From: Natrinema salsiterrestre
GTDB lineage: Archaea; Halobacteriota; Halobacteria; Halobacteriales; Natrialbaceae
DNA length: 64,000 nt
NCBI RefSeq assembly: GCF_029502005.1
Contig: NZ_JAMQOT010000010.1
Location: 1 to 64,000 of the forward strand
Direction: 5' to 3'
Position numbers and translations under genes: made by a program. The notes below the pieces were generated by a model that worked only from the letters and a program-made list of their open reading frames with translations, was not told the origin of the DNA and made no database searches. Numbering within the stretch: position 1 is the stretch's first letter; every line of letters starts with the position of its first letter. Below are positions 15,747-63,966 of the stretch, piece after piece.

Positions 15747-16730
15747 TCACGGGCCCTCTGTCGTTGATTGATGATTGGAAAGGATGTCGAACGACTCCTC
15801 GATGTCACCGAGTACGAGCAGCGCGTAGTATCTGAGATACATCACGACTGGAACCTGCGCGAGCGCCGAGATGATGAGTATCGACAGCCCGAATAGGAGT
15901 GCGAGCCCGACGAGGAGGACGGTTCCGACTGTCGACGACAGCGAGACCGTCACGTGTGTGACAGCAGCCACGATGAGAACGGGAATGAGAAGCACGATTG
16001 CGATGATTCCGACGACGCTCGAGGCGATGATCCCGGCTGCGACCGTCAACAGGAACGCGATTACGATATACGTTAGATACTGTTTCCACGCTGACCTGAT
16101 CGAACCCCAGAGTCGCATCCAAGCCGCGAGAACTCCGGAGTCTGCCTGTATCATTAGCGGCACGACGAACACGGTCGTTAACCCCGACACCAGCGCGTAC
16201 AATAGACCGATGATAAATAACACTGGGATCCCGACGAGGAACGCTGCGAAGGGAATCGTGAGGTCGAGCCCAGTTAGGATCGGAACGACGAGCAGCGCGA
16301 GCCACCCGGCGAACAGTGCAACCATCGGGACCCCGATTGCGATCCGGAACCCGAACAGGCGGAGTCCTTGTCGCCAGCGGCGACTCCAGTAGCGTCGGAT
16401 CGACACCTCGCCGGTTCGAAGTGATTCGATCAGCACGAATTCCATGATCGCTCCGATCAGCGTGAACAGCGCACCGAGGAGGAGTCCGGCAACGATGAGC
16501 GCGACAACGAGCAGTACGATGTCCACCGGGACGTTGAACGGGAGACCGCTTTCAGGGACATCTCTGGATGGCGTCGACGTGTTGAACTGTGCCGATGGGA
16601 AGCTAACGCCACTCCCGACAAAGAACACGACGAGCGCGAGCTTCAGCCAGCGGCGCACGTCGATCGGCGTTAGGAACTCCCGGGTAACGCTGAACGCCTC
16701 TCCGATGTTTTCGACGGCGTGGAGGGACAT
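15747..16730 (-). CDS. Polytopic membrane protein (DUF7544-like)
   Basis: A 327-residue inner-membrane protein with a conserved-looking N-terminal start (ENIGEAFSVTREFL, RRWLKLALVVFF) and about six to seven hydrophobic helices, including paired helices around 76-100, 128-185 and 225-300. The design resembles haloarchaeal DUF7544 proteins, whose function is unknown. It is divergent from the transfer operon starting at 16932, so the 200-nt gap between them holds both promoters. The GC-rich coding style suggests a long-resident gene. Confidence 0.65.
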   Translation of the reverse strand: MSLHAVENIGEAFSVTREFLTPIDVRRWLKLALVVFFVGSGVSFPSAQFNTSTPSRDVPESGLPFNVPVDIVLLVVALIVAGLLLGALFTLIGAIMEFVLIESLRTGEVSIRRYWSRRWRQGLRLFGFRIAIGVPMVALFAGWLALLVVPILTGLDLTIPFAAFLVGIPVLFIIGLLYALVSGLTTVFVVPLMIQADSGVLAAWMRLWGSIRSAWKQYLTYIVIAFLLTVAAGIIASSVVGIIAIVLLIPVLIVAAVTHVTVSLSSTVGTVLLVGLALLFGLSILIISALAQVPVVMYLRYYALLVLGDIEESFDILSNHQSTTEGP

Positions 16731-49972: not shown

Positions 49973-50437
49973 TTATTCCTGTTCCCCAGAGTCAGTATCT
50001 CCCGGTAGTCGAGTCCCAAGCGACCGCTGCTTATCCTCCTGCACGTCTGGTTCCTGCACTAGTTCGTTCATGCTCTTGCTGCCATACTCCGAGGCAACTT
50101 TCCGAACTCGGTCGCGCGTACTCTGGAACGAATCATCCAGATAGGACTTGGTACGTTCGAATCCACTTACGTATCGCTCTCCCTTCTCCGTTTCTTCAAT
50201 ATCACGGGACTGGCCCTCTTCATCAGCCTCGACGATTCCCATGTCGATGTATCGCTTAATCGTTCGCGAGAGTCCTTCGTCAAATGGGCCTCGGTCTTTG
50301 AGGACAGTATCGACGTCAGTCTCCCCGGGTTCACGCCGATATCGATCTAGCAGTTTATGATACTTCCCTCGGCCTTCGATCTCCCCCCCGGTCTCGTGCA
50401 GGAGGAGCAACTCTGGGTGATGATCCTCGTCGCTCAT
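49973..50437 (-). CDS. Winged-helix-like third gene of the SMC operon
   Basis: A 154-residue acidic protein. HHPELLLLHETGGEIEGRGKYHKLLDRYR, then RGPFDEGLSRTIKRYIDMGIVEADE resembles the winged-helix domain shared by YwgA/SocA-like proteins (EGR.K..KLL...GP...L...I....GI). The second half is helical and acidic (TKSYLDDSFQSTRDRVRKVASEYG). Its start overlaps the stop of the ATPase gene (ATGA), so the two are made together. It may be the sensor or the antitoxin-like partner of the ATPase. Exact role unknown. Confidence 0.6.
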   Translation of the reverse strand: MSDEDHHPELLLLHETGGEIEGRGKYHKLLDRYRREPGETDVDTVLKDRGPFDEGLSRTIKRYIDMGIVEADEEGQSRDIEETEKGERYVSGFERTKSYLDDSFQSTRDRVRKVASEYGSKSMNELVQEPDVQEDKQRSLGTRLPGDTDSGEQE

Positions 50438-52149
50438 AGGTATTCATCGAGGGTCGCCGCTTCAGTGCTGATTCGACCCAACTGGATGATCTGTGACTGA
50501 TCATCTTGGAAGTGTGATTGAATCCGATCAAGCGGAGACGTCATGATGCACTGGATCTCCACATCTCGAAGATACCGAGCTGCGGCGTCCTGAATGTCTG
50601 ATTCAAGGTTCGTGAGTGGTTCGTCAAGCACTAACACCTGCCAGTTGTGGGCATCCTTATTTTCTTGGGCAAACTGCGCTACAGTGAGCCCGAATGCAAG
50701 ATTGACCAACCGCTTCTCGCCACTGCTGAGCCGGTCATAAGGACGGATGCCCTCAGACCCCGTCCCCGGGAACTCTAGTTCCCCATCCGGTGTGAGACCG
50801 ACTTCAGTGCCGAGATCTGGTGCGATTTCTTGGTAAACCTCCGAAAGTCGGTCTGTGAAGGTTTCTCGAATCTCTTCGAATGCTTCTTGCTCCAGTTCCT
50901 CTATCTGAGCCTCTGCAGCAGATATCGATTCATCAATAGCGTTGATGAGCTCTTGGCGGTTTTCGAGTTGCGTACCGAGCTCTTCTTTCTGAGATTTGAA
51001 CTCCTCTAGGTCCTCTCGCTTCTGCGTAAGTTCAGCATTAGTCCTTTCCTGAAGTTGGTCGATATCGTGTTCTGCCTGCTTGAGTGCAGTCCTGACGAAC
51101 TGGTTGAGGTCATGTAGTTCGGGCTCGGATTCCGTGAGTTCGGTAATTTCAGCCTTAACTTCCGAGAGTTCTTCCTCTAGGTCTCCGATCTCCTCTTTCA
51201 GAGACTCAATCCGGTCGTCTGCACTATCTACCTTCTCTCGAAGCTGCTCCCGGAGTTCGCTGAGATCACGGTTACGTCCACACTGAGGGCACCTGTTCGG
51301 GAGGCGGTTCCGTGCCTTTTTTTCTTCAACCAGCCGTCCACACACGGGGCAGGTAAATTCCTGAATGGCATCAATGATGAGGTCATTGACCTTCTGCGTA
51401 TATCTGGACGTGTCACTGAGTTCCCGCCGTTTTTGTTTGAGTTGGTCCTCAAGGAACCGTCGCCGGTCATAGAGTCCGTCAAGTCGCTCTGCAACCTCGT
51501 CTTTCGCTTGAAGCCGAGCGCTGATACTCTCAATCTCCCCCGACTCAACCAGTTCTTTGAGCTCTTCGATCTCTTCAATCCGGTTCTGCGTTCTAGAGAT
51601 GGGAAGAGAATTCAGGTTCTCTTCCAGTTGCCTGATACTCGGTTTCTCTTCTCCACGTCTTCGAATCTCTCGAAGGTGGTCTAGGTCGTGTTTTGCACGG
51701 CGATGGCGTTCGATTTTTATCTGATTCTCCGCGCTGAGGAGCGACCTAATTCGATTCAGCAGATCCTCCCCAGAGTGTGCGCTGATCGGCTGGTTTGCCG
51801 GATTTGCGGTGATAAACTGGAGGCGAACATCCTCCTCTGGTCCGATGTATGATCTCACCCCTTCACCGGCATTGAGAGATTGACCATCGTGTTCGTATGT
51901 ATGTTTCTGATCCCGTAGCACTGCATCTGTGTTATCGAAGTGGACGTTCACCGTACTGTGTTGACCGGACGTGACTCCGAACGTTCCAGACCGTCCGTAC
52001 AACGCGTAAAGGATGGCGTTAAATGTCAACGTCTTTCCGGATCTGTTTCCGCCGGACAACAACAAGTCATCGCCGGAAATCGTCTCTTCGGCGATTGTTG
52101 GGCTCTCATCGATTGCGAAGTTCTCGATTTCGAGTCTACTGATTTTCAT
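50434..52149 (-). CDS. SMC/Rad50-like ATPase with zinc ribbon
   Basis: A 571-residue ABC-type ATPase of the Rad50/SMC superfamily. The P-loop is GGNRSGKT near residue 35. Coiled coils flank a central CPVCG...CPQCG ribbon that would bind zinc at the hinge. The signature RLSSGEKRLVNLAF is near 472, Walker B VLVLDEPLTN near 505, and the D-loop and switch follow. All motor motifs are intact. ATG 52149 was chosen over 52185 because MKISRLEIENF is the usual start of the fold. It overlaps the membrane-protein gene upstream by 14 nt and the next gene by 4 nt. It resembles archaea-specific SMC-related proteins and Lamassu-type LmuB in outline; the relation is not proven. Confidence 0.82.
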   Translation of the reverse strand: MKISRLEIENFAIDESPTIAEETISGDDLLLSGGNRSGKTLTFNAILYALYGRSGTFGVTSGQHSTVNVHFDNTDAVLRDQKHTYEHDGQSLNAGEGVRSYIGPEEDVRLQFITANPANQPISAHSGEDLLNRIRSLLSAENQIKIERHRRAKHDLDHLREIRRRGEEKPSIRQLEENLNSLPISRTQNRIEEIEELKELVESGEIESISARLQAKDEVAERLDGLYDRRRFLEDQLKQKRRELSDTSRYTQKVNDLIIDAIQEFTCPVCGRLVEEKKARNRLPNRCPQCGRNRDLSELREQLREKVDSADDRIESLKEEIGDLEEELSEVKAEITELTESEPELHDLNQFVRTALKQAEHDIDQLQERTNAELTQKREDLEEFKSQKEELGTQLENRQELINAIDESISAAEAQIEELEQEAFEEIRETFTDRLSEVYQEIAPDLGTEVGLTPDGELEFPGTGSEGIRPYDRLSSGEKRLVNLAFGLTVAQFAQENKDAHNWQVLVLDEPLTNLESDIQDAAARYLRDVEIQCIMTSPLDRIQSHFQDDQSQIIQLGRISTEAATLDEYL

Positions 52150-52663
52150 AGTTTTCCTCGTAGGGGACAGACATCTGTTTTGCAAGCTGGTTCAGTTCAC
52201 GAAACGACCGGACAGAGAACACACGTAATATGATGGCGGCAAGCCCGACGCCGATAAACAGGCCCACAAACTTGCCGATCACATATCCTGTGATTGGTAC
52301 TGTGATTGCGAGAAGAATTCCGGCTAGAATGGAGACGTGATGGCTATAGCCCTTCTCGTCGAAGTCATCTATTGCGTCTTTCACCTCTTGCTGGGCGGAG
52401 TCAAAGAAATCGTTTTCTCCGGTAATCCTCAGAATGGTTGCTGTGGATCGCTTCAGATTCCCTCCTGCCCAGAAGTCGTTGAGCCAATCATTAGCAACAA
52501 CGACTGTGAACATCACGGCTAGAGCCGGAACGGTAGCTGCCACAAGTGCTATCCGATCTGTCGAAATTAGAGGAATATCCCAGTATAGCAAGACGAGGAG
52601 GGAGTACACGTATATCGCCAGTGCCCCCCATCCACCGTTCTTTATCTGAGAAGTAAGCCCCAT
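52136..52663 (-). CDS. Four-helix membrane protein, first gene of the SMC operon
   Basis: A 175-residue protein with four membrane helices (about residues 13-32, 38-58, 108-128 and 131-150), a soluble loop of about 45 residues between helix pairs (WLNDFWAGGNLKRSTATILRITGENDFF) and a polar C-terminus. It overlaps the ATPase gene by 14 nt. Membrane proteins encoded with SMC- or AAA-type ATPases in defence loci often act as effectors that damage the membrane, but no known effector domain is recognised. Confidence 0.6.
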   Translation of the reverse strand: MGLTSQIKNGGWGALAIYVYSLLVLLYWDIPLISTDRIALVAATVPALAVMFTVVVANDWLNDFWAGGNLKRSTATILRITGENDFFDSAQQEVKDAIDDFDEKGYSHHVSILAGILLAITVPITGYVIGKFVGLFIGVGLAAIILRVFSVRSFRELNQLAKQMSVPYEENYENQ

Positions 52664-52895: not shown

Positions 52896-52932
52896 CGCTG
52901 TACTGGCGGGTTCCCGAAATACGGTGAGAACG

Positions 52933-53859
52933 ATGGCATCCAGAGACATCTACGAAACTGGCTTCGACGAAGACGTCCGAACGGAATCGAGCGCGAACAA
53001 ATGTCCCGAGTGCGGCGGACGAGTCACGACGAACGCGGTCGAAACGGTCTGCGAGGACTGTGGGCTGGTCATCGACGAACAGCGAATCGATCACGGGCCG
53101 GAGTGGCGGGCGTACGACGACGAGGAATGTGAACGAACGGGTGCCCCACTTGCTGCGGCTCGCCACGATCCCGGCCTGTCGACGGAAATCGGTCGCGGCA
53201 CCGACGCGAAAGGAAACTAACTCTCTGGGAAGAAGCGGCGGCGACTCGCGCGAATTCGCCGAGAGTAGACCCGGGGTCGCTGGCGGTTGGAATCGGAACG
53301 GAATCTCGCCCACGGACTGGGCGAAGTGCGTCGGTTAGCGAGTGCCCTCGAGATCTCCGATTCGGTCCGCGACCAGGCGTGTCAGCTCTTCCGGAGCGCC
53401 CAGAACGAGGATCTGCTTCGTGGCAGATCCATCGAGGCCATTGCTGCGGCCAGCGTCTACGGAGCCTGCCGGTGTAACGGCCTCTCTCGGTTAGTGGACG
53501 ACATCAGCGAGATGGCCCGCGTCGCGGAGCCACGGGTCACGAACGCGTACAAAACGCTGAACGAAGAGCTGAGCCTTCCCGCTGAGCCCGTCTCACCCAG
53601 CATGTTCGTGCCGCGCCTCGCCTCGAACCTCGAGTGCCCGGATGAGATCCGACAGCGGGCCCGAACGCTCGCTGAGCAGGCAGAAGAGCGCGGCGTCACG
53701 ACGGGCGTCTATCCGGCCGGGTTCGCCGCGGCCTGCCTCTACAAGGCCGGTCGCGAGCAGGGCCGATGGTTGACGCAATCCGAGGCCGCGGACGTGGCGA
53801 ACGCCTCGAAGGCGACCGTCTGGACACACCGAGATACGTTGGAGGAACAGGTCGCCTGA
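52933..53859 (+). pseudogene. tfb: Transcription factor TFB gene with two in-frame stops
   Basis: TFB (archaeal TFIIB) recruits RNA polymerase to TATA-bound promoters. The N-terminus has the zinc ribbon CPECGG...CEDCG and the B-finger region WRAYDDEE...[20 protein letters not shown]. The frame is stopped by TAA at 53218 and TAG at 53266 and then continues in the same frame through linker residues (AERT-less LARIRRE...TRGRW region) into both cyclin repeats (VRRLASALEISDSVRDQACQLFR and VFVPRLASNLECPDEIRQRARTL) to 53859. Both stops lie in codons normally Glu and Gln. Everything else is intact, so decay is recent. Confidence 0.82.
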
Positions 53860-55257: not shown

Positions 55258-56100
55258 ATGTCTGGGAGCAAGGCGCACATAACAGAGCCCTCGGAAATCG
55301 CTCAAGACCAGTTGTCCCTGTTCGACGCGTTATCAGGCGACGATGCAGAGCGGATTATCCCGCTCAGCATGCTCGAGACACAGCACTACTGTGAGCAGAA
55401 AGCCCGGTTCCAACGTGGCAGCGACTGGGACGAAGAGTCACTCCCAGCACGTCTCGTTCGAGGACGAGAACAACACAGCGAACTCGCCGAAACAACGACT
55501 TCAACCGATAATGAGTACACGCTCGCAGACGCATGGGATGACATCCAGTCCGGGGATGTCTCACTGATCTACCCGCCCTTCGCACACGAATTCGTGAACA
55601 TGGTGGTAGTCGGACGACCGATGTTTCTCCGGTTCACCGAGAGTCAACCATCCCAGCTGACGCTCGTCCGCGGCGTCACCAAAGAACCGTACACGGAGCG
55701 ACTCTTCTCAAACGAGGAGTTTCTGTTGTGGTGTCACGGCAACTTGTTGGACCGAATCGGGTTCGACGTCTCAGACCTTTCGATTCGCTACCTCAAGTAC
55801 CCTCAGTCGAAGTTCGACGCTGTCGAAGTGAGCAGAGCACAACTTCTGCTCGCCGCCGAAGACGGTGACGACATCACCGTTCAACTTGACCAAAACTCCT
55901 CACTACACCCAAACATTCGGCGCCATCCGATCACGTACGAACGGGACAGTGAACGAGGGAAGCAACTCCGGGCGTACGCCGCATTCTGGCGAGACGACGG
56001 CGACGACCCTGACGGTGCGAATCACTGGAAGCAATGTGCGAGTTGTCGCTTCCAGCCACAGTGCGACTTAGCACTCGCCGAAGGGGACCACCGCGGGTGA
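55258..56100 (+). CDS. Cas4/RecB-like Fe-S nuclease-fold protein
   Basis: A 280-residue protein with the Cas4/AddB cysteine layout: C45 (TQHYCEQK) near the N-terminus and C260, C263, C269 (CASCRFQPQC) at the end, which would hold a 4Fe-4S cluster. RGREQHSEL near 70 is the helix carrying the first conserved His. The usual catalytic core (G-x-x-D and E-x-K, about 120-145) reads GRPMFLRF and LTLVRG, so the Asp and Glu/Lys appear replaced. It may be a structural partner rather than an active nuclease. It is the first gene of an operon with an exonuclease and a helicase; the next start (GTG 56097) overlaps its stop. Confidence 0.65.
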   Translation: MSGSKAHITEPSEIAQDQLSLFDALSGDDAERIIPLSMLETQHYCEQKARFQRGSDWDEESLPARLVRGREQHSELAETTTSTDNEYTLADAWDDIQSGDVSLIYPPFAHEFVNMVVVGRPMFLRFTESQPSQLTLVRGVTKEPYTERLFSNEEFLLWCHGNLLDRIGFDVSDLSIRYLKYPQSKFDAVEVSRAQLLLAAEDGDDITVQLDQNSSLHPNIRRHPITYERDSERGKQLRAYAAFWRDDGDDPDGANHWKQCASCRFQPQCDLALAEGDHRG

Positions 56101-57638
56101 TCACTGATGAATATCCAGACGCTGATAGTCCAAATGATGCACAGCCGAAGGCGACCACGGAAATGGCCACTTCGGGCGACAGCAATCGGAGGACGTCCAT
56201 GATCGGCCTCACTGTCCTTCCTGAGCCGACGATAGAACAGTGTGAGAGGACCCAACTCAAAGACATTGTCCACTACTTTGACTCTGAGGTCGTCTTTACC
56301 CCGGATCAGGTCCACGAACCGTTTCTCAATGCTACTCTCGAAGATTCCGTAGAGGTAATGACTCAACCGCTGGCCCGTGGGCGGGCCACGCAGATCGCGT
56401 GCGATGACGATACACGGTTGGTCTGGGCCTCGACTCCGGCCGAACTTGAGGAAGCCATCCAATTAACACAGACCGGAGTACTAGAGGACCGCCCGGAGTG
56501 CTTTATTCTCTCCGACCAGTTGCGTGTCTCCGTCGACCTGATCGACTTGGAAGCCCATCTCGATGGCCTTGCGGAGTATCGAGCACCGTTCGACAAGCAC
56601 GATGCCGTCGACGCGTTTACGCACCTCACGGTTGAAGCGAACCCGAAGTACCGCGCAGAGTGGGAAGGTATTGATGTTCAAGGTGTAATGCCCGGCGCAA
56701 ACAAACAGCAAGGGGCCAGCGGCGCCGGCGTCGCACACTTCGAACTGCAGGCGGGCGGTGTCGTCGGGGAAAAGACACGCAAGCTGAGTGCATTCGGACT
56801 TCAAGCCGTTGACCAAGTCGGCCGGTCACGAGCAGCCACGCTCAACGAGGCCGGTATTCAATCCCGTCAGGACCTCGAATCGGCCTCTGTCCACGAAATC
56901 TCCAAGCTAGCAAATCTCGGGCAGCAAACGGCAAGAACCGCAATTGAATCCGCGCAAGTAATCGAACACGGCGAGATCCGGAAAGCACCTGGAGCAAGCC
57001 TTCCAGAGAAAGACCCGATCTTCATTGACATCGAGACTGATGGCCTCAACCCAACGATTATCTGGCTCATCGGCGTCTACATCCCGTCACAGGACGACCG
57101 GTATATGCCGTTTATTGAGACGGACCCGACGCAGCCAGCAACGGCTCTTGAGGAGTTCCTCTCGTGGCTATCCGAACACGGGAACAACCGGCCGATCGTC
57201 GCCTACAATGGGTGGAACTTCGATTTCCCGGTCATCCACGAACACATCGACGAGCACTGCCCACAATACCTCGACTTCTGGGAGAGCACTCACCGATTCG
57301 ACCTCTACGACTGGGCGGTCAGAAAGAACAACGCCCTCCTCCCCGGATTAACGAACAAACTGGACGACGTCGCGCCGGCACTGGGATGGGAACCACTTGA
57401 CACTGGCCTAACGGGCGCTGAGGTTGGCCGGCTATTCCAACGATACGCTGCGAACCCTTGCCCTGCTACTGAGCTGGACTGGGAGCGGCACAAACGGTAC
57501 TGCGAGGACGACGTTCGCGCACTCGCACACATCTATGACCGGGTCGCAACAGCGACACGACGCATGACGACAACCAACCGCAGATCGACTTCGGCGACCG
57601 AAGACACCACGTCACAAGGAACACTCAACGATTTCTAA
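56097..57638 (+). CDS. YprB/MrfB-like RNase-H-fold exonuclease
   Basis: A 513-residue protein. The N-terminal half is of unknown fold. At about residues 250-310 is a helix-hairpin-helix pair (LQAVDQVGRSRAATLNEAGI, ISKLANLGQQTARTAI). The C-terminal RNase-H-like exonuclease domain carries FIDIETDGL (D, E), VAYNGWNFDFPVI (D) and YCEDDVRALAHIY (D), the four acidic residues of the DEDD type. Bacillus MrfB/YprB works with helicase MrfA in mitomycin repair; the same pair is here. GTG 56097 was chosen for its 4-nt overlap; M at 56163 or 56199 is possible. Confidence 0.72.
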   Translation: MITDEYPDADSPNDAQPKATTEMATSGDSNRRTSMIGLTVLPEPTIEQCERTQLKDIVHYFDSEVVFTPDQVHEPFLNATLEDSVEVMTQPLARGRATQIACDDDTRLVWASTPAELEEAIQLTQTGVLEDRPECFILSDQLRVSVDLIDLEAHLDGLAEYRAPFDKHDAVDAFTHLTVEANPKYRAEWEGIDVQGVMPGANKQQGASGAGVAHFELQAGGVVGEKTRKLSAFGLQAVDQVGRSRAATLNEAGIQSRQDLESASVHEISKLANLGQQTARTAIESAQVIEHGEIRKAPGASLPEKDPIFIDIETDGLNPTIIWLIGVYIPSQDDRYMPFIETDPTQPATALEEFLSWLSEHGNNRPIVAYNGWNFDFPVIHEHIDEHCPQYLDFWESTHRFDLYDWAVRKNNALLPGLTNKLDDVAPALGWEPLDTGLTGAEVGRLFQRYAANPCPATELDWERHKRYCEDDVRALAHIYDRVATATRRMTTTNRRSTSATEDTTSQGTLNDF

Positions 57639-57641
57639 CCA

Positions 57642-60077
57642 ATGAGCAACACCACCCCATCACTCGACACGGTCCTGAACACTGACACACTCGAAGACAC
57701 GTTCCCCGAGTATGAAGGCCAGCTGGTCGACACGATTACAGACCCACCGAGGGAGGCAGACAGGGTCTCGGCCACCGACGTACTCCCCGATACACTCGCC
57801 GAGCCACTCGAACACGACCTCTACAGCCATCAGGCGGCAGCAATTCAGGAGTTACAGGCCGGAAACAACGTCACCGTCTCGACGTCGACGTCTTCCGGGA
57901 AGACATGGATTTACACGCTGTACTTCTGCCTTCGGAAACTGCAGAACCCGGACGCCCGTGCACTCTTCCTATACCCGACGAAAGCACTGAGCGCAGATCA
58001 AGAACGCGCGATCAACGACCTATTCAACAAACTCGGCATTGATGCCTTCGCCGAAACGTACGACGGCGACACTAAAGACGACCGGAAGAAACTCATCAGG
58101 GACCGCGTCGATGTCGTCATCTCGAACTTTGCCGGGATGAACCAGTATCTGGAGTCCCATATGAAATGGCGAGATGTCTTCCAGAACTGCGAACTCGTCG
58201 CCGTTGATGAGTGCCACACGTACACTGGCGTTCACGGAATGCACGTTGCGTGGGTCATCCGTCGACTCCGACGGCTACTCGACCACTACGGCTCCGACCC
58301 GCAGTTCGTCTGCTCAACAGCCACCATCGGGAACCCCCGCGAGCACTCTGAACTCCTGACCGGGACTGACTTCCAAGTCATCGACGATGACGGCAGTCCG
58401 CATGGCCGCCGCGAAATCGCGTTCTGGGAACCACCACTTCAAGAAACAGACGGGCCCGTCGACGAACTTGGCGAAGACGAAATCCTCCCATCGATGCGAC
58501 GGAACGCCGACGATGAAGCCGCAGGTGCCCTCGTTCACCTCGCAAAAAACGACGTCCAGACGCTGATGTTCACCGACTCACGGCAAGGCACAGAAATCGG
58601 CGTCAAACGCGCGATCGAAGCCGCCCGAAACCATCCAGAAAGCAGCTACGTCGACATCGACCCGTACCACGCAGGGCTCAGTAAACGGAAACGCCGTGCC
58701 GTCGAGAACAAGCTGAGCAGCAGCGATCTCGACGGCGTCATCTCGACGAGCGCCTTAGAACTTGGGATCGACATCGGATCGATGGACGCCACTGTACTCG
58801 CAGGCTACCCCGGCACCCGGCAATCCTTCTGGCAACGGATCGGCCGCGCCGGCCGCGGAACCACAGACTCCCTGTCTGTATACGTCCCGCAATCCGACGC
58901 CATCGACCAGTATATCCTGGACAACCCAGAGTACGTCCTCGAAGAAAACGTGGAGGACGCCGTCGTCGATCTCTCAAACAATCCAGTCTATGCCAAGCAT
59001 GTCCTCTGCGCTGCGTCTGAACGCCCGCTCACGGAGGCCGACGCGGAATGGTTCGGGTTAGAAGACCGACTCGCACGCGCCATCGACATGTGGCAGGCAG
59101 CAGGACAGATGGTGGGTGATCTGGACCGTGGGGCGCAGTACAACGGGTCCGCCCGCCCGCAAAGCGACATCTCGATGTACGCCACTACAGACGAACAGTA
59201 CAAAGTCCGGCAGGAAGACGGCGACATCGACATGGAACCCCTCGATAAAGAACGCGTCTACCGGGAGTTCTACCCTGGAGCGTTGGTCCTCCACGATGGC
59301 GACCAGTACGAGGTTCAAGAGGTGGTAGAAGACCGTATCCACCCGTACGTCACCGTTGAAGAATCACACTCTTCAAACTATACGCAAGCAATTCACGACA
59401 AGCAAATCACTGACTTAGAGATCGACCGCTCGTACGACCTCGGCAACGGGTACCAGCTCTGTGCCGGCATGGGGACCGTTCACATCAATTACAGCGCCTA
59501 TAACGTCCTCAACATCCACACCGGCGAAGTCGTTGAACCGCTCGTCCCCATCGACTTGGATCCCATCTACCTCCGAACACAACTCATGTGGATCGCCTTC
59601 CCAGACCAAGCAATCAATCAGACGCTCCAAGAGATCCCATCGATTTCATACCTGCAGCCAGACGAGGGGTCCGAGTTCGCATCGATGGGAGAAGAAGAAT
59701 ACACGATCACCGGTGGTCTTCACGGCGGCGAGCACGGCATGATCAAAATGGCTCCGCTAGAGCTCCGGTTGGACAACAGCGACATGGGCGGGTTATCCAC
59801 CCTATACCATTCAGAAGTCGGTAGCGCGGTCTGGTTCATCCACGATGCCGTCGAAGGTGGAATTGGATTCGCCCACAGTATCTACGAGAATTTTGAAGCA
59901 GTAGCCCAGCGCACTCTTGAACGGATCGATGACTGTGACTGCGGGCGTGACGTTGGCTGCCCCGCATGCCTGATGAGCAGTCAATGCGGGAATCAAAACG
60001 AACCACTCCACCGTCCAGCCGCGGTGAGTCTTCTCGGAAAAGCGATCAATCAAGTCGAGACAACCACATCTGACTGA
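57642..60077 (+). CDS. YprA/MrfA-like superfamily 2 helicase
   Basis: An 811-residue helicase. Motif I is STSSGKTW (K87), motif II DECH (D189), motif III STATIGN near 222, motif VI QRIGRAGRG near 405. The C-terminal domain has CDCGRDVGCPACLMSSQCG (about 763-785), the four-Cys MrfA zinc-binding (DUF1998-like) module. It unwinds DNA and in Bacillus acts with YprB. The gene starts 3 nt after the exonuclease stop, so they are made together. Length is close to that of the family (about 750). The C-terminal part includes EEYTITGGLHGGEHG, the part linked to metal binding in the family. Confidence 0.82.
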   Translation: MSNTTPSLDTVLNTDTLEDTFPEYEGQLVDTITDPPREADRVSATDVLPDTLAEPLEHDLYSHQAAAIQELQAGNNVTVSTSTSSGKTWIYTLYFCLRKLQNPDARALFLYPTKALSADQERAINDLFNKLGIDAFAETYDGDTKDDRKKLIRDRVDVVISNFAGMNQYLESHMKWRDVFQNCELVAVDECHTYTGVHGMHVAWVIRRLRRLLDHYGSDPQFVCSTATIGNPREHSELLTGTDFQVIDDDGSPHGRREIAFWEPPLQETDGPVDELGEDEILPSMRRNADDEAAGALVHLAKNDVQTLMFTDSRQGTEIGVKRAIEAARNHPESSYVDIDPYHAGLSKRKRRAVENKLSSSDLDGVISTSALELGIDIGSMDATVLAGYPGTRQSFWQRIGRAGRGTTDSLSVYVPQSDAIDQYILDNPEYVLEENVEDAVVDLSNNPVYAKHVLCAASERPLTEADAEWFGLEDRLARAIDMWQAAGQMVGDLDRGAQYNGSARPQSDISMYATTDEQYKVRQEDGDIDMEPLDKERVYREFYPGALVLHDGDQYEVQEVVEDRIHPYVTVEESHSSNYTQAIHDKQITDLEIDRSYDLGNGYQLCAGMGTVHINYSAYNVLNIHTGEVVEPLVPIDLDPIYLRTQLMWIAFPDQAINQTLQEIPSISYLQPDEGSEFASMGEEEYTITGGLHGGEHGMIKMAPLELRLDNSDMGGLSTLYHSEVGSAVWFIHDAVEGGIGFAHSIYENFEAVAQRTLERIDDCDCGRDVGCPACLMSSQCGNQNEPLHRPAAVSLLGKAINQVETTTSD

Positions 60078-61524: not shown

Positions 61525-63966
61525 ATGTCGGACGAGGCTGACGATTTGTATGATAAATACATCGACTACGATGGCAGAGATCTCGATACCAGGAATGTCG
61601 GTGATGGGAAAGTAGTTCGGCCGATTACGGCCGAGAACTTCGAGATGGAGAAACGGACTCTAGGGGAAGTTCTCACCGATCAGAAGTTCAACGTACCAGA
61701 GTACCAGCGACTGTACTCGTGGAAGAACATCCACCACGAACAGTATTGGTCGGACATCGAGCAGTTCGTTACTGCCGACCTGGTCGCTGACCGACGCGAG
61801 GTGTCTGACGTGTTCTTCAGCTCGATGTACTTCGCGGTCAACGACGACAAACAGGTGTACGAGGTCATCGACGGCCAACAGCGGCTGACGACGACACACC
61901 TGCTGTTGCGCGTCCTTATGGAGCACCTCGAGGACGTTGATCCAGCTTCTATCGAGGACGATACCCTCGCGGAGTTCCGGGACTATGGGATCGGGCGAAT
62001 CACCGATATCCTCTATGTGGAGGAATCATTCGGGAAACGTGAGCCCCGACTCACGCTGAACAAACACGACGCTGAATTTTTCAAAGCCCTCATGATGGGG
62101 CCGTCCGCCCAGGTGGACTACCTCAAAAATGAAGCGGACTTCAGCATTCACGGGAACAACAGCGACGCGGTGCAAGTCTCGGAATGTCTGGACCGGTTCG
62201 GCATCACGGACGATGAACTCGCAGACTTAGATACGGACTCTCTCTCAATGGGGGCGTTCTTCAAACTATACCGGTCACATCGGCGGTTGTTGAACGCTTA
62301 CGAGTTCTACGACAAGAAGATCAGCGACGTCATCGCCGACGCCGAGACGCCGGACGAGACGGTGCGAGCGCTTGTGAACATCCTCAATTACGTCTACAAC
62401 TCCTACCATGTCGGGGAGTACCTGATTCGAGAGGCGGAATCGGACTTCCGGATGCAGATTTTCGAGATTTTAAATGACCGTGGCGTCGATCTGACGAAAA
62501 TCGACCGTATCAGGGCCGCAGTCGTGAACGCCTTCTTCGATACCGACGTGAAAGACGAGTACGTCGACAAGTGGGAAGACATCGTAGTAGCGTTTGCAAC
62601 CGATGGTAATGCCATCGACGACTACCTCTCGATCTATCTGAGTATCGTCGACGATGGCATCGACAGGATTGGTGATGCGAGCGCTGAACTGACCAACGCC
62701 TTCGACACGCGGAACATCGACTCGGATGTCGTCCCGCGCCTCCGGAATCTCGATGAAGCGAAGGCCTTCCTCGACTACGCGCACGACCTCGTCGACTACT
62801 ATCAAGATATCACAACCACGGAGCTCGCCGCTGAGGACCTTGAGTTAGCCAGTCACCGAGAGCAGTGTCGGGAAATCCTTGTTCGCCTCAATAACCAACA
62901 GATGGACCAGTGGCGGCCGTTCGTCTTGGCGCTCTACTATCACACCAATCCTGAATCGGAACGTGATGCAGCACAGTTCTATCGCGTATTAGAGACCATC
63001 GAGAAACTCAACCTGCGCCGCCTCCTCATTTCTGAACGACCGAGTATTTTCCGCGAGGTGTTCATCGAGGCCGTCGAAGAGTTCAACCTCGCACCAACCG
63101 CGGATGGGACTCCAGACAGTGTGTACGAGGCCTCTCGAGAGTATCTCATCACCGAGATGCGTTCCTCTACGCCGACGCTGTTCGGCGACCGGTTCATCGA
63201 TACGGTCGTTCAGACGCAGTCCTGGAGTACTGGAACGGCGCGACTGCTCTTCGGAAAGATCGCCCAGGATTACTTCGACGACGGTAGTCGTGCCGTCGAG
63301 CGAGACCTGAATATGGGGAACATCCATCTCGAACACGTCCTACCGCAGACTCCCGTCAGCGACCCAGAAGACCCTACGTGGCTTCGCGAGTTTTTCAAAC
63401 TCGATTCGGAGCCGGATATCGAGATTGCGTCAGAGATCGAGCGCTATATCGAGCTGGTGCAGCGCTCGGATCTCGATGAAGAGGAGGAGCGACTGAAAGA
63501 CAACATCTCGGAGTTCATCACGCAGGGGTTCATCGACGATATCGGGAACTTCCTCTTGCTCCGCGATACCGATAATATCGGAGCGAGCAACCGACCACTC
63601 GCCGAGAAGATGACGCAGTACTACTCCGAGATCGACGGGTTCGCGAGTATCTACCCCAATCGGTATTTCACGGCCGAATATGGCAACGTCGATCGCGAAT
63701 TCCTCGACAAACTCCGTGAGCAGCACGATGGCGGTGATGTTTCGAATATGGACGCCGATGTAGTGGCGTATTTCAATTCCTTCTGGACTTATGAGACCCT
63801 GCAGGATCGACGAATCGAGCTCCTGCTGGATATTCTGACGACGCTAGGGTTCGATTCGTTTGAAAACGAATTCGGGATTGAATTCGACCAAGATGAGGTA
63901 CGCCAAGAAATTCGAGAGAAGACTGACCAAGAGTTCGAGAAACGTCTGTCCGTCCGGTCGCTTTGA
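61525..63966 (+). CDS. GmrSD-type DUF262/DUF1524 restriction protein
   Basis: An 813-residue single-chain type IV-like restriction protein. The N-terminal DUF262 domain (ParB-like nucleotidase) has YQRLYSWKNIHHEQYWSDI near residue 55 and the DGQQRLTTTHLL motif (D116). The C-terminal DUF1524 HNH nuclease has LEHVLPQTP (H604) and the later NxxLLRDTDNIGASN (about 675). GmrSD proteins cut DNA with modified cytosines, such as glucosylated phage DNA, using NTPs. The frame is intact. It stands next to the MrfAB-like operon, in a defence island. Confidence 0.87.
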   Translation: MSDEADDLYDKYIDYDGRDLDTRNVGDGKVVRPITAENFEMEKRTLGEVLTDQKFNVPEYQRLYSWKNIHHEQYWSDIEQFVTADLVADRREVSDVFFSSMYFAVNDDKQVYEVIDGQQRLTTTHLLLRVLMEHLEDVDPASIEDDTLAEFRDYGIGRITDILYVEESFGKREPRLTLNKHDAEFFKALMMGPSAQVDYLKNEADFSIHGNNSDAVQVSECLDRFGITDDELADLDTDSLSMGAFFKLYRSHRRLLNAYEFYDKKISDVIADAETPDETVRALVNILNYVYNSYHVGEYLIREAESDFRMQIFEILNDRGVDLTKIDRIRAAVVNAFFDTDVKDEYVDKWEDIVVAFATDGNAIDDYLSIYLSIVDDGIDRIGDASAELTNAFDTRNIDSDVVPRLRNLDEAKAFLDYAHDLVDYYQDITTTELAAEDLELASHREQCREILVRLNNQQMDQWRPFVLALYYHTNPESERDAAQFYRVLETIEKLNLRRLLISERPSIFREVFIEAVEEFNLAPTADGTPDSVYEASREYLITEMRSSTPTLFGDRFIDTVVQTQSWSTGTARLLFGKIAQDYFDDGSRAVERDLNMGNIHLEHVLPQTPVSDPEDPTWLREFFKLDSEPDIEIASEIERYIELVQRSDLDEEEERLKDNISEFITQGFIDDIGNFLLLRDTDNIGASNRPLAEKMTQYYSEIDGFASIYPNRYFTAEYGNVDREFLDKLREQHDGGDVSNMDADVVAYFNSFWTYETLQDRRIELLLDILTTLGFDSFENEFGIEFDQDEVRQEIREKTDQEFEKRLSVRSL

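What the first reader, a model, noticed from the sequence alone, without database searches (positions are those of the whole stretch)
55258..60077. Cas4-like protein joined to an MrfA-MrfB-like helicase and exonuclease
YprA/YprB (MrfA/MrfB) is a known bacterial repair pair. Here it is led by an Fe-S Cas4-like protein with overlapping genes, on mobile DNA beside a GmrSD restriction gene. This could be a repair module carried by the element or a nuclease-helicase defence system not yet described.
Basis: partly seen in the sequence, partly recalled or inferred. Interest (0 to 1): 0.65.

Follow-up and report, generated by a model that had tools for sequence, protein, structure and literature searches.

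The report
Mobile MrfAB helicase-exonuclease with inactivated Cas4
Plasmids of salt-loving archaea carry a fixed three-gene cassette in which a DNA-unwinding and DNA-trimming pair known from repair has gained a Cas4-like iron-sulfur protein that has lost its cutting site, a combination I found no description of, whose job (defence or repair) is untested.

Summary
Window 55258-60077, on a 115-kb haloarchaeal plasmid-like contig, encodes a Cas4-like protein, a YprB/MrfB-like exonuclease and an MrfA-family helicase, next to GmrSD. The genes do not overlap: the conserved MrfB start is 56199. The trio recurs in the same order in 10 haloarchaeal species of several families, mostly on plasmid-size replicons. 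In 392 haloarchaeal genomes the Cas4-like gene and this MrfA clade occur in exactly the same 7. The MrfA clade is monophyletic (98/97), so one gain explains the trio. All 20 other MrfAB pairs examined lack the gene. The Cas4-like protein keeps its four iron-sulfur cysteines but has lost its PD-(D/E)XK catalytic residues, yet is under purifying selection. MrfA and MrfB active sites look intact; all 30 haloarchaeal MrfBs end in a PCNA-binding (PIP) motif. MrfA is of the compact MrfAB 'repair' type, not the DISARM/Dpd/Druantia defence type. Neighbours include pAgo, GmrSD and other defence genes, but an unbiased nearest-neighbour test was not significant (5/16 vs 3/20, p=0.22). Best reading: a mobile MrfAB-type helicase-exonuclease with a dead Cas4-like DNA-engaging subunit; defence slightly favoured over plasmid-borne repair, neither shown. 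New variant of a known kind.

The parts
55258..56100 (+). Cas4-like (PF12705/EXO5/Cas4 superfamily) protein, 280 aa, nuclease-dead, Fe-S ligands C45, C260, C263, C269 kept
   Evidence: four Cys invariant in all copies; GxPD->GRP(M/T), (D/E)RK->VRG, QxxLY->LxWCH; dN/dS about 0.07-0.17
55390..55392 (+). first Fe-S cysteine (C45) of the Cas4-like protein
   Evidence: invariant in A1
55621..55674 (+). degenerate catalytic segment (M122 where active relatives have D; V137 for D/E; G139 for K)
56035..56064 (+). C-terminal Fe-S cysteines C260, C263, C269 (CxxCx5C)
   Evidence: invariant in A1; this region matches human EXO5 Fe-S segment, E 0.007
56199..57638 (+). MrfB/YprB-like DEDDy 3'-5' exonuclease: unknown N-terminal domain + HHH + RNase_H_2 (longest ORF starts 56034)
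   Evidence: PF13482 9.7e-29, HHH_5 7.6e-7; conserved start and DxE/D/YCExD
57615..57635 (+). C-terminal PIP-box-like motif QGTLNDF
   Evidence: Q-x-x-L-x-x-[FW] at the C-terminus in 30 of 30 haloarchaeal MrfBs; consensus QxxLxxFx in PMC7776575
57642..60077 (+). MrfA (YprA) helicase, 811 aa, DECH box, MZB Zn-binding domain, no large inserts
   Evidence: 6znp, E 4e-103, collinear 57-779; tree
61525..63966 (+). neighbour, not part of the cassette: GmrSD-type type IV restriction protein
   Evidence: GmrSD_N 6.2e-27, GmrSD_C 8.9e-8

Best explanation
A mobile three-subunit DNA-processing module. MrfA loads on single-stranded DNA and unwinds 3'->5'; MrfB, which can be tethered to the PCNA clamp by its C-terminal PIP-box, digests the exposed strand 3'->5'; the catalytically dead Fe-S Cas4-like protein is a fixed non-catalytic subunit that recognises or clamps DNA (ends, ssDNA/dsDNA junctions) and hands it to the pair. 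It travels on haloarchaeal plasmids. Its selected role is most likely destruction or stalling of invading DNA, ahead of plasmid-borne DNA repair by a narrow margin. Shown by sequence: three genes in fixed order, one origin, co-inheritance, family identities, intact helicase and exonuclease motifs, dead Cas4 site with conserved cysteines, PIP-like motif. Inferred: complex formation, polarity (from B. subtilis MrfA/MrfB), Cas4-like DNA binding, and the defence role.
For: Fixed order Cas4-like - MrfB - MrfA in all 10 species. Exact co-occurrence in the same 7 of 392 genomes (Fisher 3.7e-15). The triad MrfA clade has support 98/97 and one change of state. Cas4-like and MrfA distances correlate, Mantel r 0.98, p 2e-4. 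Cas4-like under purifying selection, dN/dS 0.07-0.17 in all but one informative pair. Catalytic residues lost but cysteines invariant. Plasmid records in 3 of 3 closed replicons. Defence genes nearby at several loci: GmrSD, SMC/LmuB-like, TGT/DpdJ-like (window contig), pAgo and type IIG RM, TmtA and BrxHII, CBASS-type genes and PbeA-like helicase. YprA helicases are central to several defence systems (PMC12458937), and a Cas4-like plus YprA-like link was earlier predicted to be defence (PMC5704561).
Against: The helicase is of the MrfAB type that PMC12458937 assigns to the repair branch and lacks the inserts of the defence branch. The PIP-box is shared with ordinary MrfAB pairs and points to replication/repair. 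An unbiased test of nearest neighbours (>=200 aa) gave 5/16 PADLOC hits for triads vs 3/20 for pairs, p 0.22: defence context is suggestive only, and the richer list of defence neighbours was not sampled without bias. No usable structure of the Cas4-like protein was obtained (pLDDT 35). No physical interaction is shown.
Confidence: 0.42

Rival explanations
1. A plasmid-borne DNA-repair module: a horizontally mobile version of the haloarchaeal MrfAB nucleotide-excision-type pathway, in which the dead Cas4-like Fe-S protein is a lesion- or junction-sensing accessory. It protects plasmid and host from DNA damage and sits among defence genes only because plasmids collect cargo.
For: MrfA is collinear with B. 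subtilis MrfA and nests inside the tree of ordinary haloarchaeal MrfAB pairs. PIP-box in all MrfBs. 148 of 392 haloarchaeal genomes have MrfA-family hits at E <= 1e-150. Of the 7 triad genomes only G000 and G031 show a second MrfA match at that cut-off, so the triad may be the only MrfAB in the other five. The neighbour test did not distinguish triads from pairs.
Against: Very patchy, largely plasmid-borne distribution and a unique added subunit are more typical of conflict systems; G000 and G031 carry a separate MrfAB pair anyway.
Confidence: 0.36
2. Helper of replicon maintenance or recombination (for example plasmid end processing, copy control, or exclusion of rival plasmids) rather than repair or antiviral defence.
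For: Plasmid location; Orc1/Cdc6 near the triad in N. ordinarius and Har. pelagica and on the same contig here; Orc1 97.5% identical between the window contig and the N. ordinarius plasmid.
Against: The cassette occurs on replicons with otherwise different content and the Orc1 gene is about 40 kb away here.
Confidence: 0.15
3. Chance neighbourhood: the Cas4-like gene is an unrelated or decaying passenger upstream of an ordinary MrfAB operon.
For: About 98 bp gap between Cas4-like and MrfB in the window; catalytic site lost.
Against: Present and adjacent in every copy of this clade in several families, under purifying selection, distances co-vary with MrfA.
Confidence: 0.03

Closest known systems
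MrfAB (YprAB) of Bacillus subtilis
   Same: SF2 helicase of the YprA/MrfA family with MZB domain, collinear with the solved structure; adjacent DEDD exonuclease gene
   Different: Extra Cas4-like first gene; MrfB is DEDDy with HHH, a different N-terminal domain and a C-terminal PIP-box, not DEDDh with TPR; plasmid-borne; gene order B then A
Chromosomal haloarchaeal MrfB-MrfA pairs (e.g. G000:C11:275544-279427)
   Same: Same two proteins, same order, same MrfB architecture and PIP-box
   Different: No Cas4-like gene; MrfA 47% identical; beside thioredoxin-like and glutamine synthetase ORFs
Cas4-like (pfam12705) plus YprA-like (COG1205) link of Hudaiberdiev et al. 2017 (PMC5704561)
   Same: Cas4-like gene associated with a YprA-family helicase in bacteria and mesophilic archaea, predicted defence
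   Different: Described as a nuclease; helicase has large inserts with metal-binding domains; no MrfB mentioned in the passage. Here the helicase is the compact MrfA type, an MrfB is present and the Cas4-like protein is dead
DISARM, Dpd, Druantia, ARMADA, BRIGADE, TALON (PMC12458937)
   Same: Built around a YprA-family helicase, some with nucleases or dead nuclease domains
   Different: Their helicases form the other main YprA branch with inserts and partner genes (methylase, BrxHII, PLD or 7-deazaguanine genes) that are not part of this cassette
TM0106 family (TIGR03491), 'RecB-like putative nuclease'
   Same: C-terminal HHH plus RNase_H_2 region matches the MrfB-like protein (49 bits, profile positions 214-458 of 462)
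   Different: Far below the family cut-off (97.45 bits); the match covers only the C-terminal half. That its N-terminal half is a Cas4-like domain, making the trio a split version, is my inference from the family name

Membership tests
MrfA / YprA helicase | SF2 helicase core plus C-terminal MZB/DUF1998 Zn-binding domain | tested here: met
   Pfam DEAD 1.9e-25, Helicase_C 2e-14, MZB 2.5e-17
MrfA / YprA helicase | Collinear with the B. subtilis MrfA structure, no large inserts | tested here: met
   6znp aligned 57-779 of 811, E 4e-103
MrfA / YprA helicase | 3'-5' unwinding and role in mitomycin C repair | not testable with these tools
   needs biochemistry and genetics
MrfB / YprB exonuclease | DEDD exonuclease of the RNase_H_2 family encoded beside MrfA | tested here: met
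   PF13482 9.7e-29; DxE, D and D conserved; profile reaches MrfB structure 8un9 only at E 0.078
MrfB / YprB exonuclease | DEDDh active site and C-terminal TPR domain as in B. subtilis MrfB | tested here: not met
   YCExD (DEDDy), HHH and C-terminal PIP-like motif instead
Cas4 nuclease | Four-cysteine Fe-S cluster binding pattern | tested here: met
   C45, C260, C263, C269 invariant; Fe-S binding itself not testable here
Cas4 nuclease | PD-(D/E)XK catalytic residues (GxxD, D/ExK, QxxxY) | tested here: not met
   D, D/E, K and Q substituted in every copy
Cas4 nuclease | CRISPR adaptation neighbourhood (cas1, cas2) | tested here: inconclusive
   no cas gene noticed among the neighbouring ORFs or annotations read; no dedicated cas1/cas2 search was run
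ARMADA/Druantia/DISARM/Dpd/BRIGADE | Defence-branch YprA helicase with inserted domains and obligate partner genes | tested here: not met
   compact 811-aa helicase; partner set absent from the 3-gene unit; a tree including defence-branch members was not built here

The most novel reading that the evidence does not exclude
A previously undescribed archaeal anti-MGE system in which an MrfAB repair machine was converted to immunity by acquiring a nuclease-dead, iron-sulfur Cas4-like subunit that selects DNA to be unwound and digested, possibly sensing redox state or DNA ends.
Probability: 0.3. Interest if true: 0.72.

Novelty: new variant of a known kind. Interest (0 to 1): 0.52.

Why it matters
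MrfAB is known as a repair pair, while its helicase relatives drive several defence systems. A mobile MrfAB with one fixed added subunit is a plausible intermediate between repair and immunity. A dead Cas4-like protein kept under selection with intact cysteines also poses a clean test of what the Fe-S fold does without the nuclease. The trio occurs on small replicons of Haloferax species, a genus with well-developed genetics, so it can be tested directly.

Tried and rejected
Viral contigs (IMG/VR) and phage records hold no relative of the Cas4-like protein that the searches could find, and viral contigs none of its active relatives, so a phage-borne origin is not supported. Overlapping genes: rejected. 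Active Cas4 nuclease: rejected. Defence-island enrichment: the by-eye list of neighbours looked strong, but the unbiased control did not reach significance, so it is not used as proof. Split TM0106 fusion: TIGR03491 matches only the HHH and RNase_H_2 part of MrfB, and no protein over its cut-off was found among 197 genomes of the phylum; kept as an analogy only. The stand-alone relative in L035 lacks the C-terminal cysteines and MrfAB and was set aside. The sister pair in L072 (MrfA 70%) was checked and no Cas4-like gene was recognised upstream.

Full report
WHAT IS THERE. The window is the first 64 kb of a 115-kb contig of a haloarchaeal genome. The contig has ORFs that look like Orc1/Cdc6, ParA and an integrase, and no terminal overlap was found, so it is plasmid-like but not closed. 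At 55258-60077 (+) lie three genes: a Cas4-like protein (280 aa), an MrfB/YprB-like exonuclease and an MrfA/YprA helicase (811 aa). The longest ORF for MrfB starts at 56034 inside the Cas4-like gene, but homologues start at M-IGLTVLP (56199), and two have a stop codon just upstream, so the genes do not overlap. GmrSD lies 1.4 kb downstream.

THE CASSETTE IS REAL. Every locus examined with a close Cas4-like gene (58-79% identity; nine loci, two of them the same N. ordinarius plasmid) continues into MrfB and MrfA in the same order. A collection scan of 84,980 species added Halorussus ruber and gave names for others: Haloferax elongans, Haloferax denitrificans and Natronorubrum bangense. That makes 10 distinct genomes: the window's, G031, G020, G188, Natronobeatus ordinarius, N. 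bangense, Hfx. elongans, Hfx. denitrificans, Hrs. ruber and Haloarcula pelagica. The three closed replicons are plasmids. In 392 genomes of the class, the close Cas4-like gene and an MrfA of at least 78% identity occur in exactly the same seven (Fisher p 3.7e-15).

ONE ORIGIN. The next nearest MrfAs (49-70%) are two-gene MrfB-MrfA pairs; in 20 such loci no Cas4-like relative was found by tblastn. The MrfA tree puts the ten triad members in one clade (98/97) nested among the pairs, with a single change of state. Protein distances of Cas4-like and MrfA correlate (Mantel r 0.98, p 2e-4). dN/dS of the Cas4-like gene is 0.07-0.17 in informative pairs; one very close pair (dS 0.02) gave 0.53 and says little.

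A DEAD CAS4. Direct family searches give only weak Cas4 matches (Cas4d 0.004; TIGR00372 0.0016-0.007). Homology is secured through two active-looking haloarchaeal Cas4-like proteins (in L032 and L033; PF12705 8e-5 and 5e-8, TIGR00372 2e-8): profile comparison gives probability 98.5%, E 3.9e-15 over 233 columns, and their profile finds the triad proteins at 1e-12 to 1e-16 in whole genomes. Active relatives read GGxPDA...F(E/D)RKT...IQxWLYG; triad proteins read GRP(M/T)...LVRGVT...xLLWC(H/Y), with GCP in one member. The D, D/E, K and Q of the nuclease site are gone in every copy, while C45, C260, C263 and C269 are invariant. The C-terminal cysteine segment resembles that of human EXO5 (E 0.007).

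THE PAIR. MrfA's best solved relative is B. subtilis YprA/MrfA (6znp, E 4e-103), collinear with no large inserts. The MrfB-like protein has HHH and RNase_H_2 domains, conserved DxE, D and YCExD, hence DEDDy; B. subtilis MrfB is DEDDh with a TPR domain (PMC11194089). Thirty of 30 haloarchaeal MrfBs end in QxxLxx(F/W), matching the PIP-box consensus QxxLxxFx given for Haloferax (PMC7776575); that paper also describes NreA, whose family carries a C-terminal PIP motif and whose loss gives mitomycin C sensitivity. The window's genome has a second MrfB-MrfA pair without a Cas4-like gene.

CONTEXT. Defence genes lie near several triads: GmrSD and an SMC/LmuB-like ORF (window), pAgo and type IIG RM (Haloferax), TmtA, BrxHII and PDC-S27 (N. 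ordinarius), CBASS-type genes and a PbeA/SNF2 helicase (Har. pelagica), PDC-S26 (G188). These were partly chosen by eye. Taking only the nearest ORF of at least 200 aa on each side gives 5/16 for triads against 3/20 for pairs, p 0.22. The defence context is suggestive only.

MECHANISM. Established for B. subtilis (papers above): MrfA is a 3'-5' helicase and MrfB a 3'-5' exonuclease acting in mitomycin C repair. Inferred here: the dead Cas4-like protein is a permanent DNA-engaging subunit of such a machine. Whether the substrate is invading DNA or damaged plasmid or host DNA cannot be decided from sequence.

NOVELTY. No paper found in the library holds both 'Cas4-like' and MrfB. [quoted passage not shown] Most subscription papers are not in the library. 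I rate it a new variant of a known kind.

Noticed in passing
G000:C1 67482-96359 (L013, L015; beyond the window): Two TGT/DpdA-like proteins, DUF6884-like and HATPase-like ORFs, a PLD-like ORF, and two very large helicases (1362 aa DpdJ-like by PADLOC; 1575 aa): resembles a Dpd/BRIGADE-type DNA-modification defence system on the same contig.
   Followed up: partly
window 49973-52663 (-): SMC/Rad50-like ATPase (LmuB and archaea-specific SMC-related hits) flanked by a small acidic ORF and a membrane-protein-like ORF: possible Lamassu-like or ASRP module.
   Followed up: partly
window 52924-53859 (+): Transcription factor B split by an in-frame stop: zinc-ribbon ORF 52924-53220 and cyclin-repeat ORF 53287-53859, while an intact paralogue lies at L013 4850-5776; probably a TFB pseudogene.
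   Followed up: no
L036 about 15860-16090 (N. ordinarius plasmid): MrfB of the N. ordinarius triad is interrupted by a roughly 230-bp insertion with terminal inverted repeats and an apparent target duplication of about 10 bp (CATCAAAACC), MITE-like; Cas4-like and MrfA stay intact.
   Followed up: partly
L029 2827-5076 and L030 14588-16837: A prokaryotic Argonaute (PADLOC pAgo E 0 in L029; the L030 ORF has nearly the same N-terminus) lies immediately downstream of MrfA, convergent, in two Haloferax species, followed in L029 by a type IIG methylase.
   Followed up: no
G000:C1 97393-99156 (L118): A second ORF that looks GmrSD-like on the same contig.
   Followed up: no
L035 9488-10348 (-): Stand-alone relative of the dead Cas4-like protein (24% identity, shares LDRxGFDVSDLS) without the C-terminal cysteines and without MrfAB.
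   Followed up: no
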